From: Brucella haematophila
Lineage (GTDB): Bacteria > Pseudomonadota > Alphaproteobacteria > Rhizobiales > Rhizobiaceae
Direction of reading: 5' to 3'
NCBI RefSeq assembly: GCF_005938105.1
Contig: NZ_VCPE01000022.1
Span: 1-64,000 of the forward strand
DNA: 64,000 nt
Part shown: positions 42,286 through 64,000 of the stretch, piece by piece
Position numbering within the stretch: the stretch's first letter is position 1
How the letters are laid out: each line of letters starts with the position of its first letter
The notes under the pieces: model-generated
Databases searched by the model: none
What the model was told of the DNA's origin: nothing
What the model saw: the letters and a program-made list of their open reading frames with translations, nothing else
Translations under genes and position numbers: made by a program

Positions 42286-42388
42286 AGAGCGCGTTTCGAT
42301 CTGATTGGATCAGATCGGCGCTCTAATTCTTTGTTTTAACGCGCATCTTTCCCGAAAGCCGTTTCACACTTTTCGGGATGCGCTCTAG
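42286..42388. repeat. Palindromic repeat, family B (full RIME-like element) at end of autotransporter 2
   Basis: Two adjacent hairpins: AGAGCGC (42286-42292) / GCGCTCT (42318-42324) around TGATTGGATCA, and GCGCATCTTTCCCGAAAG / CTTTTCGGGATGCGC spanning 42341-42383. The inner part is the reverse complement of the core AAAAGTGTGAAACGGCTTTC. The last bases include the stop codon of the autotransporter 2 gene (42385-42387). The element fits the Rhizobium-specific intergenic mosaic element type. Confidence 0.7.
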
Positions 42389-62082: not shown

Positions 62083-62952
62083 ATGCGCATTTTCCTGTTC
62101 GGGGCCGGATATTCGGCACAAGCCTTTGCCAAGCGGATGACGGGAGAAGTAGAGCGCATTGACGGGACAACCCGGCATGAACAGAAATTCCCAACTCTTG
62201 AGAAATCCGGCATTTCGCCAGTCTTGTTCGATGGTGAAACGCCCTCGCCCGAACTTCTGGAGCGGCTTGCCAAGGCAACCCATGTGGTGATTTCGATTGC
62301 GCCCGGCGAAGCGGGCGACCCGGCGCTTGCATGGGTCGAAGAAGCGCTGCGCCGTCCCGACAATACGATTCGCTGGATCGGCTATCTCTCGACCGTCGGT
62401 GTTTATGGCGATCATAAGGGCGCATGGGTGGATGAAACCACGCCCTGCAAGCCGGTTTCGCGCCGCAGCCTCGAACGTGTCGAGGCAGAGCAAGCCTGGA
62501 CAAGCCTGAGCGAGAGGCACGGAACGCCGCTGGCTATTCTGCGGCTGTCCGGCATTTACGGCCCCGGCCGCAATGCTTTCGTCAATCTGGAGCGCGGCAC
62601 GGCGCGACGTCTCGTCAAGCAGGATCAGGTTTTCAACCGCATCCATGTGGAAGACATTGCTGGCGCTTTGCGCTTTCTCGCGGGCACCGATACGGGCGGT
62701 ATTTTCAACATTACCGATAATGAGCCATCGCCGCCGCAGGATGTCGTCACCTATGCGGCAGAGCTGATGGGCGTCACGCCGCCGCCGGAAGTGCCGTTCG
62801 AAGAAGCAGAACTGACGCCGATGGCGCGCTCCTTCTATGGCGAGAACAAGCGTGTCTCCAATCAGCGCATTCAGGCGCTCGGCTACACATTCGCCTATCC
62901 CGACTACAGAACCGCCTTTTCGGCCATGTGGCGGGACGGGAGCTGGCGCTGA
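62083..62952 (+). CDS. NAD-dependent epimerase/dehydratase-like protein (YeeZ type)
   Basis: 289 residues starting 1 bp after the queG stop. Atypical Rossmann motif MRIFLFGAGYSAQAFA, then STVGVYGDHKGAWVDE (YxxxK-like but incomplete: YGDHK) and LRLSGIYGPGRNAF. This is the YeeZ-type SDR group of uncertain reaction, possibly a nucleotide-sugar binding protein. Probably cotranscribed with GST-queG. Confidence 0.82.
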   Translation: MRIFLFGAGYSAQAFAKRMTGEVERIDGTTRHEQKFPTLEKSGISPVLFDGETPSPELLERLAKATHVVISIAPGEAGDPALAWVEEALRRPDNTIRWIGYLSTVGVYGDHKGAWVDETTPCKPVSRRSLERVEAEQAWTSLSERHGTPLAILRLSGIYGPGRNAFVNLERGTARRLVKQDQVFNRIHVEDIAGALRFLAGTDTGGIFNITDNEPSPPQDVVTYAAELMGVTPPPEVPFEEAELTPMARSFYGENKRVSNQRIQALGYTFAYPDYRTAFSAMWRDGSWR

Positions 62953-63001
62953 TTGCACGCGTGCAGCCCTTCGGGTAAAACGCGCTGACGCAAATTCCAA
63001 A

Positions 63002-63085
63002 CCGGGACATAACAATGGGTAACAGCAAGTCAGCAGATAAATAAGCCGCAACAGCTTTTCCAACCTGTTGCGGCATCTGTCCCGG
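63002..63085 (+). promoter_or_regulatory. Chloramphenicol-type translational attenuator (leader hairpins)
   Basis: Outer stem CCGGGACA (63002-63009) with TGTCCCGG (63078-63085) is a perfect 8 bp. Inner stem GCCGCAACAG (63045-63054) with CTGTTGCGGC (63065-63074) is a perfect 10 bp and begins one base after the leader stop codon. The outer stem covers GGGACA, the only ribosome-binding-like sequence before the leader ATG. This is the expected layout of phenicol-inducible attenuators; induction is inferred. Confidence 0.75.
63015..63044 (+). CDS. Nine-codon leader peptide upstream of the CmlA/FloR-like exporter
   Basis: Encodes M-G-N-S-K-S-A-D-K then TAA, 101 bp before the exporter ATG. The cmlA leader, as I recall it, reads M-S-T-S-K-N-A-D-K, of the same length and with the same S-K-x-A-D-K end; chloramphenicol stalls ribosomes on it. 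The hairpin at 63045 begins right after its stop. Confidence 0.78.
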   Translation: MGNSKSADK

Positions 63086-63145
63086 ACCAACGTCTTCCAT
63101 TGCAGGCAGATTGCCGCCCGATTGTCTTCGAGCGGATGCTTTGTC

Positions 63146-64000
63146 ATGCCATTTGATCATCAGAAAACTCCATCCTGGAGCTTCACTTTGCCATTCGCGC
63201 TTGCGCTGATGGCTCCCTTCGACATTCTCGCCTCGCTGGCCATGGATATCTACCTGCCGGTGGTTCCATCCATGCCGGCAATTCTGCAAACAACGCCTGC
63301 CATGGTGCAACTCACACTCAGCCTCTACATGGTGATGCTGGGTGTCGGGCAACTCCTCTTCGGTCCATTGTCCGACCGCATCGGGCGCAAGCCGGTGCTG
63401 TTGGGCGGCGGTGCCATATTTGTGCTTTCTTCCTTTGCGCTGGCGGCGACGGATAGCGCCACGGTTTTCGTCGCCTTGCGTTTCACCCAGTCTGTCGGCG
63501 CTTCAGCCGCGCTCGTTGCAACCTTTGCCACGGTGCGTGACGTTTATGCCGACCGCCCGGAAGGCGCGACAATCTACGGCCTTTTCAGCGCCATGCTCTC
63601 CTTCGTTCCGGCCATCGGCCCCATCGCTGGCGCACTGATCGCCAGCGGTTTCGGCTGGCGCGCGATTTTCGTAGCGCTCGGCATGTTTGGCCTTGTCGCA
63701 ACATGGCGGGCGTTCCGCCTCTGGCCGGAAACACGCCCGGACGGAACTCGCGTTGACCACCTAAGCGCATTGAAAATATTGAGGGATTTTCCGTTCTGGG
63801 CCTACACGCTGGGCTTCGGCACGGCGATGGGCACCTTCTTTGTTTTCTTTTCCACGGCGCCGCGCATCCTGATCGAAAGAGGCGGCTTCGGAGAGACGAC
63901 GTTCAGCCTGGCATTTGCAAGCGTTGCCATGGTTATGATTGCCGCCACGCGCCTTCTGTCACCTTACACCCGAAAGTGGGGTGTACGAAAAAGCGTGGCG
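63146..64000 (+). CDS. MFS phenicol exporter of the CmlA/FloR family (partial, cut by the window edge)
   Basis: The first 285 residues of a 12-helix transporter (about seven to eight helices visible). Strong family match: FALALMAPFDILASLAMDIYLP, then MVQLTLSLYMVMLGVGQLLF, then GPLSDRIGRKPVLLGGG (the A-loop motif), DVYADRPEGATIYGLFSAML and GTFFVFFSTAPRILIERGG. The CML group (CmlA, FloR, Cml-like) exports chloramphenicol and often florfenicol through the inner membrane, driven by protons. Both FloR and CmlA share the MDIYLPVVP signature seen here. The leader peptide and hairpins upstream suggest inducible translation. The C-terminal third lies outside the window. Confidence 0.85.
   Translation, partial: MPFDHQKTPSWSFTLPFALALMAPFDILASLAMDIYLPVVPSMPAILQTTPAMVQLTLSLYMVMLGVGQLLFGPLSDRIGRKPVLLGGGAIFVLSSFALAATDSATVFVALRFTQSVGASAALVATFATVRDVYADRPEGATIYGLFSAMLSFVPAIGPIAGALIASGFGWRAIFVALGMFGLVATWRAFRLWPETRPDGTRVDHLSALKILRDFPFWAYTLGFGTAMGTFFVFFSTAPRILIERGGFGETTFSLAFASVAMVMIAATRLLSPYTRKWGVRKSVA

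What the first reader, a model, noticed from the sequence alone, without database searches (positions are those of the whole stretch)
63002..64000. Phenicol exporter with a cmlA-like leader-peptide attenuator in a chromosomal context
A nine-codon leader (M-G-N-S-K-S-A-D-K, 63015-63044) precedes a CmlA/FloR-family exporter. Its length and S-K-x-A-D-K end match the leader I recall for integron cmlA (M-S-T-S-K-N-A-D-K), on which chloramphenicol-bound ribosomes stall. A perfect 10-bp hairpin starts right after the leader stop, and an 8-bp outer stem traps the leader's own ribosome-binding sequence. The exporter sits among ordinary chromosomal genes with no integron, transposon or insertion sequence visible, so this could be a native ancestor of mobile cmlA/floR genes and their attenuators.
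Basis: partly seen in the sequence, partly recalled or inferred. Interest (0 to 1): 0.85.

Follow-up and report, generated by a model that had tools for sequence, protein, structure and literature searches.

The report
Chromosomal chloramphenicol-sensing leader RNA switch
A soil-type bacterium's own chloramphenicol pump gene is preceded by a nine-residue leader and a folding RNA that look like the drug sensor known from mobile resistance genes, and the same arrangement precedes nearly all the related pump genes that were checked.

Summary
In detail: leader MGNSKSADK (63015-63044), 10-bp hairpin and outer stem are present before a CmlA/FloR-family exporter (from 63146).

78 of 80 named relatives have a leader whose stop abuts the hairpin; the other two keep the peptide motif but not that stop. 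A plasmid floR has the identical peptide with different codons. All 42 distinct leaders in 85 loci have Ala/Ser before the predicted P-site residue, as published chloramphenicol rules predict.

Both covary. This could explain floR, whose first hairpin, two papers note, misses the ribosome-binding site.

In two samples (398 and 397 genomes) all 23 exporters above the family cut-off are preceded by the element; the one other hit looks like chance.

The gene is native: 16 same-genus genomes, window included, hold it at this locus. 'Ancestor of mobile cmlA/floR' is not supported, though not formally rejected.

Weak point: predicted exposure of the ribosome-binding region is small. Drug-induced expression was not testable. 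Verdict: a new member of a known kind, with a fuller proposed mechanism.

The parts
63002..63009 (+). outer stem, 5' arm (CCGGGACA), contains the leader's GGGA at 63004-63007
   Evidence: lineage-specific: duplex of -7 kcal/mol or better in 32 of 52 non-redundant sequences; 4 of 2000 permutations as good as cognate
63015..63044 (+). leader ORF MGNSKSADK; predicted chloramphenicol stall with Asp8 (63036-63038) in the P site, Ala7 before it, Lys5 at -3, Lys9 in the A site
   Evidence: stall position by analogy with the cmlA leader toeprint (PMC11190716 passages) and the context rule (PMC11832420 passages)
63045..63054 (+). segment 1, 5' arm of hairpin 1:2
   Evidence: 99.2% of cells paired over the 11-pair family helix
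63065..63081 (+). segment 2: 63065-63074 pairs with segment 1; 63070-63081 can pair instead with segment 3
63078..63085 (+). outer stem, 3' arm (TGTCCCGG); overlaps the end of segment 2
63105..63121 (+). segment 3: 63105-63117 pairs with segment 2 (12 bp, one bulge); 63114-63121 pairs with segment 4; the shared 63114-63117 makes the two mutually exclusive
63128..63135 (+). segment 4 (TCGAGCGG), overlaps the exporter's presumed ribosome-binding region
63146..64000 (+). CmlA/FloR-family phenicol exporter, 397 aa; continues to 64339 on contig C15
   Evidence: 59% identical to FloR, 46% to CmlA1

Best explanation
A chloramphenicol-inducible translational attenuator of the cmlA kind, with a four-segment RNA switch. 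Without drug, ribosomes finish the leader; hairpins 1:2 and 3:4 form and 3:4 covers the exporter's ribosome-binding region. With drug, the ribosome stalls with Asp8 in the P site and Lys9 in the A site, because Lys(-3), Ala(-1) and Asp(0) are the residues that favour chloramphenicol arrest. Its footprint covers the start of segment 1 and opens 1:2. Segment 2 then takes segment 3, segment 4 is freed and the exporter is translated. Shown here by computation: presence, conservation, covariation of 1:2, 3:4 and 2:3, and association with the exporter. Inferred: stalling on this leader, the switch in the cell, induction, and phenicol export.
For: Leader: 78 of 80 named loci have a stop abutting the hairpin; the other two keep KSADK or KSSDK but read on. 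42 of 42 distinct peptides in 85 loci have Ala/Ser at -1, 41 of 42 Lys/Arg at +1. Codons 5-9 differ synonymously in 1089 of 3403 codon differences against 398 of 3403 for random changes of the same size. Context rule Ala, less Ser/Thr (-1), Asp(0), Lys(-3): PMC11832420 passages. cmlA leader arrest at Asp8/Lys9: PMC11190716 passages. RNA, 45 sequences: permutations as good as cognate pairing were 0 of 2000 for 1:2, 0 of 2000 for 3:4, 15 of 2000 for 2:3, and 1971 of 2000 for the 2:4 control. Two-sided changes that keep pairs: 8 of 21 pairs in 1:2 plus 3:4, 5 of 12 in 2:3. Folding, 52 sequences: 2:3 goes from 1.2 to 8.8 expected pairs when an assumed footprint is removed (shuffled 1.7 to 5.3); 3:4 is 10.3 in the free RNA against 5.5 shuffled. 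The ribosome-binding zone is less open than shuffled controls, 0.21 against 0.32. Association: 23 of 23 exporters above cut-off; on loci left out of the model, 10 of 10 exporter loci and 0 of 17 loci of lower-scoring homologues (some of the ten are close kin of model rows).
Against: Predicted release of the ribosome-binding zone is weak: 0.21 to 0.26 open, 12 of 52 sequences gaining more than 0.1; over a different zone 0.34 to 0.41 against 0.33 to 0.36 shuffled. In the S. meliloti RNA hairpin 3:4 persists after footprint removal, and the window's fold in that state is no stronger than shuffles (z 0.57). RNAalifold alone finds only 1:2. cmlA1 itself (L033, -2.1 kcal/mol) and L039 (-0.6) lack a good 3:4 in the aligned place, and plasmid floR L034 has a weak one (-5.9). 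Synonymous excess is also present, though smaller, in codons 2-4 (625 of 2881 against 385 of 2881). The covariation controls do not correct for relatedness. No expression, toeprint or probing data exist for this genome.
Confidence: 0.75

Rival explanations
1. The leader stall acts mainly on the RNA's amount: the stalled ribosome prevents premature termination (Rho-type) or protects the mRNA from decay, and the hairpins serve that. Not exclusive of the best explanation.
For: floR mRNA rises on phenicol exposure: an 8-fold rise is cited in PMC5890775 (passages) and induction of two variants is reported in PMC8256890 (passages). Hairpin 3:4 need not open much at equilibrium.
Against: Hairpin 1:2 in the window is not followed by a run of T. 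Helix 3:4 sits over the ribosome-binding region and covaries, which termination does not need.
Confidence: 0.2
2. The decisive step is at the leader's own ribosome-binding sequence: the outer stem gates leader translation.
For: The 8-bp stem is perfect in the window and forms in the fold; 4 of 2000 permutations are as good as cognate pairing.
Against: 32 of 52 sequences reach -7 kcal/mol, so it is not general, while 1:2 and 2:3 nearly are. It leaves exporter translation unexplained.
Confidence: 0.08
3. The element is an inherited relic and the exporter is expressed constitutively.
For: No expression data from this genome.
Against: Excess of synonymous change in the leader, covariation and presence at all 23 exporters above cut-off indicate selection.
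Confidence: 0.04

Closest known systems
cmlA1 translational attenuator (Stokes and Hall 1991, known to me here through the review PMC8876359, passages)
   Same: 9-codon leader ending S-K-x-A-D-K, stop abutting a GCCGC hairpin, alternative stem-loops proposed that hide or free the cmlA start region, exporter of the same family
   Different: integron cassette with its own promoter; exporter 46% identical; no good 3:4 in the aligned place
putative floR attenuator (PMC5890775 and PMC8256890, passages)
   Same: identical leader peptide in the plasmid floR read here (L034) and the same kind of hairpin
   Different: mobile gene; those papers say the stem-loop does not overlap the floR ribosome-binding site and leave the link open. 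The 2:3 / 3:4 switch proposed here supplies one
ermC and cat attenuators (PMC5418344 passages, and recall)
   Same: drug-stalled leader ribosome frees a downstream ribosome-binding site
   Different: different leader peptides and genes

Membership tests
cmlA-type chloramphenicol translational attenuator | short leader ORF with its own ribosome-binding sequence, upstream of the exporter | tested here: met
cmlA-type chloramphenicol translational attenuator | chloramphenicol-stall motif in the leader sequence | tested here: met
   sequence only: K-S-A-D-K against the published rule
cmlA-type chloramphenicol translational attenuator | chloramphenicol-dependent ribosome stalling on the leader | not testable with these tools
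   needs a toeprint
cmlA-type chloramphenicol translational attenuator | hairpin directly after the leader, within reach of a ribosome stalled at the penultimate codon | tested here: met
   opening by a ribosome is inferred
cmlA-type chloramphenicol translational attenuator | exporter ribosome-binding site sequestered without drug | tested here: met
   as a prediction:
cmlA-type chloramphenicol translational attenuator | ribosome-binding site freed on stalling | tested here: inconclusive
   2:3 replaces 3:4 in the mean, but net opening is small
cmlA-type chloramphenicol translational attenuator | drug-induced expression of the exporter | not testable with these tools
   no expression data
CmlA/FloR exporter family (NF033134) | score above the curated cut-off | tested here: met
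   600.4 bits, cut-off 450
FloR proper (NF000219) | score above the curated cut-off | tested here: not met
   495.7 bits, cut-off 700
CmlA proper (NF000509) | score above the curated cut-off | tested here: not met
   369.3 bits, cut-off 875
recent mobile insertion | a boundary between neighbours and exporter that differs between relatives | tested here: not met
   same neighbours in 16 same-genus loci; one presence change on the SDR plus mepA tree
integron cassette | attC site and integrase | not tested
   no attC or integrase search was run
any Rfam family | covariance model match | tested here: not met
   0 matches at E up to 1 in 62500-64000

The most novel reading that the evidence does not exclude
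The cmlA/floR attenuator is an old chromosomal chloramphenicol-sensing RNA of Proteobacteria, not matched by any Rfam model in the stretch tested, kept together with its exporter and tuned to the ribosome's best chloramphenicol-stall motif. It uses a general 1:2 / 3:4 against 2:3 switch and was carried along when these exporters became mobile. Mobile cmlA and floR would then be separate captures of an already finished sensor-plus-pump unit.
Probability: 0.55. Interest if true: 0.65.

Novelty: new member of a known kind. Interest (0 to 1): 0.55.

Why it matters
It turns a puzzle in print (how a floR hairpin that misses the ribosome-binding site could control floR) into a testable switch. It supplies 42 natural leader peptides that all fit the main chloramphenicol context rule. 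It also places the sensor in chromosomes of soil and plant-associated bacteria. Finding it before all 23 above-cut-off exporters in two genome samples suggests that sensor and pump are an old unit; that it was assembled before becoming mobile is inferred, not shown.

Tried and rejected
Rfam: no match. RNAalifold on A3 found only hairpin 1:2, so 3:4 and 2:3 rest on named-structure counts and swap tests. Pairing of the last leader codons with the bases after the hairpin: 1504 of 2000 permutations as good as cognate; dropped. Ancestor of mobile floR: the free tree puts FloR elsewhere, but the AU test did not reject the joint clade. The exporter tree was the quick method, with a warning that CmlA1 and the outgroup are long branches that meet. 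The weak model hit in G604 has no leader and lies inside or beside a 500-codon kinase-like frame (kinase by eye): taken as chance. The leader-finding script found leaders in 9 of 13 model loci; it missed the window's own locus, which has one, and L159-L161.

Rows dropped before counts: 3 of 88 loci (L080, L085, L087) by rule; 33 of the 85 left as near-duplicates, giving 52; 7 of 52 with long spacers, giving 45 for A3. These ten (3 plus 7) were the left-out exporter loci. In one search, of 119 exporter-like rows, L049 and L054 (short reads to the first stop), 25 rows over 97% alike and 10 further outgroup rows were left out, giving 82. In one search one of 11 exporter-less loci (L138, at a contig end) was left out.

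Full report
Observation. The window ends inside a CmlA/FloR-family exporter that starts at 63146 and runs to 64339 on its 72,263-base contig. It scores 600.4 bits against NF033134, cut-off 450, and stays below the FloR-proper and CmlA-proper cut-offs; it is 59% identical to FloR and 46% to CmlA1.

Leader. In 80 named genome loci fetched with an exporter alignment (the best 80 kept of 396 confirmed), 78 have a leader whose stop codon is followed at once by GCCGC. The other two, L080 and L087, keep K-S-A-D-K or K-S-S-D-K but have a Tyr codon where the stop would be and read on to 29 and 24 residues. Of 88 loci (these 80 plus the window and seven plasmid-collection loci), 85 passed the extraction rules, with 42 distinct peptides. 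Position -1, before the predicted P-site residue, is Ala or Ser in 42 of 42; +1 is Lys or Arg in 41 of 42; 0 is Asp or Glu in 33 of 42; -3 is Lys in 29 of 42. In the window's own group several relatives have M-(G/S)-S-T-E-L-A-T-R, which keeps Ala at -1 but not Lys(-3) or Asp(0). Further leaders outside the 85 also have Ala, Ser or Thr at -1 where the script found one. Published rules say chloramphenicol arrests best with Ala, then Ser and Thr, at -1, helped by Asp at 0 or Lys at -3 (PMC11832420, passages). The cmlA leader was toeprinted with Asp8 in the P site and Lys9 in the A site (PMC11190716, passages). The plasmid floR leader (L034) has the same peptide as the window with six different bases. 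In codons 5-9 of the 9-codon non-redundant leaders, 1089 of 3403 codon differences are synonymous, against 398 of 3403 for random changes of equal size; in codons 2-4, 625 of 2881 against 385 of 2881 (sequence pairs are not independent). This points to selection on the peptide, strongest at its end.

RNA. The first hairpin alone does not reach the exporter's ribosome-binding region, some 53 bases further on. Two papers say the same of floR and leave the link open (PMC5890775 and PMC8256890, passages). Downstream I find segment 3 (63105-63121) and segment 4 (63128-63135). 3:4 covers the ribosome-binding region; 2:3 is a 12-bp helix that shares bases with both 1:2 and 3:4. In the window the full RNA folds as outer stem, 1:2 and 3:4. 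From 63051 on, that is without the part I assume the stalled ribosome covers, it folds with 2:3, though that fold is no stronger than shuffles (z 0.57). Across 45 aligned sequences, the permutations as good as cognate pairing are 0 of 2000 for 1:2, 0 of 2000 for 3:4, 15 of 2000 for 2:3 and 1971 of 2000 for a 2:4 control. Pair counts agree: 93.1% of cells paired in 1:2 plus 3:4 with 8 of 21 pairs changed on both sides, and 92.2% with 5 of 12 such pairs in 2:3. Slid versions of the two structures pair 30.5 to 55.6% of cells. RNAalifold on its own predicted only 1:2. cmlA1 (L033) and L039 have no good 3:4 in the aligned place, and plasmid floR L034 a weak one.

Folding simulation, and what went against it. 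Over 52 non-redundant sequences, expected 2:3 pairs rise from 1.2 to 8.8 on removal of an assumed footprint ending about 15 bases after the P-site codon's first base (shuffled spacers 1.7 to 5.3); 3:4 falls from 10.3 to 6.5 (shuffled 5.5 to 6.4). The zone -18 to -10 before the exporter start is 0.21 open against 0.32 in shuffled controls, but opens only to 0.26, with 12 of 52 sequences gaining more than 0.1 and none losing as much. I chose that zone after a first one (-16 to -4) showed little change (0.34 to 0.41, shuffled 0.33 to 0.36). In S. meliloti 3:4 persists. So sequestration and the competing helix are supported, and the amount of release is not. Folding during transcription or wider occlusion by the ribosome could matter; neither was modelled.

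Association. A covariance model of the element was run on 398 genomes across the phylum: 13 genomes have it, and they are exactly the 13 with an exporter above the family cut-off. In 397 genomes of the order, 15 have such exporters and all 15 have the element; the sixteenth genome with a hit (E 6e-4) looks like chance. Together this is 22 different genomes, six of them in both samples and one of them the window's own, with 23 exporters. In 22 of 23 the element ends within 16 bases of the family match; in G114 it ends 133 bases before it. These searches used stricter filters that lose weak matches. Of loci left out of the model, 10 of 10 exporter loci hit and 0 of 17 loci of lower-scoring homologues did.

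Native or mobile. The order SDR-type gene - exporter - mepA is shared by 16 same-genus loci, the window's included; in 11 others the SDR-type gene lies next to mepA with no exporter. These are 27 of the 35 same-genus genomes; the other 8 were not examined at this site, and one of them (G031) has a more distant exporter elsewhere (L019). On a tree of SDR plus mepA (26 genomes, rooted at the midpoint) presence changes once; the exporter group has support 92/97. Gain or loss thus happened once and the gene then passed down. The exporter tree (82 rows, quick method) puts the window in an 11-row Brucellaceae-type clade, FloR inside a 16-row group with Rhizobium, Mesorhizobium and other mainly alphaproteobacterial rows, and CmlA1 with a same-phylum homologue (66% identical) on long branches. 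The joint clade of window and FloR groups is not rejected (p 0.197), so 'ancestor' is unsupported rather than excluded.

Prior art. Attenuation of cmlA, alternative stem-loops included, is old knowledge (PMC8876359 passages), and a putative floR attenuator is in print. In my searches (I saw listings, and passages of nine papers) I saw no description of the leader in chromosomal alphaproteobacterial exporters and no 3:4 / 2:3 switch for floR. The library lacks most subscription journals and all bioRxiv preprints. An Ochrobactrum strain with such a gene was chloramphenicol-resistant (PMC6069005, passages), which fits but does not prove the function.

Verdict. A real, conserved, chromosomal member of the cmlA/floR attenuator kind, with a fuller proposed mechanism. 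As far as those searches show, it is new as a member and as a family-wide description, not as a principle.

Noticed in passing
L043, L044, L045, L047, L048, between hairpin 1:2 and segment 3: The spacer of several relatives holds an insertion resembling a dispersed palindromic repeat (seen); the repeat pattern (up to 3 mismatches) has 60 copies in the window's own genome and 0 for its reversed control. The switch segments on both sides are kept.
   Followed up: partly
window 42352-42382: One copy of the same dispersed repeat, minus strand, one mismatch.
   Followed up: no
L086 and L154, upstream of the exporter: A floR-type exporter preceded by the cmlA1 leader peptide MSTSKNADK: apparently a natural hybrid of the two attenuators.
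   Followed up: no
leader codon -1 across 52 non-redundant loci: When the residue is Ala the codon is GCA in 40 of 40, although other positions use several codons; unexplained.
   Followed up: no
L159, L160, L161 (same phylum, other class): Weaker model hits (42.5-43.8 bits) before exporters of 586-587 bits; in L161 the frame that ends at the hairpin reads MNNGNGPQTVR, with Thr at -1 (read by eye).
   Followed up: partly
G758, contig C3 at 6196 and 72015: Two exporters in one genome, both with the element.
   Followed up: no
L012 and L017: The exporter and mepA matches are split into pieces in two assemblies of low completeness (85% and 69%); possibly assembly errors.
   Followed up: no
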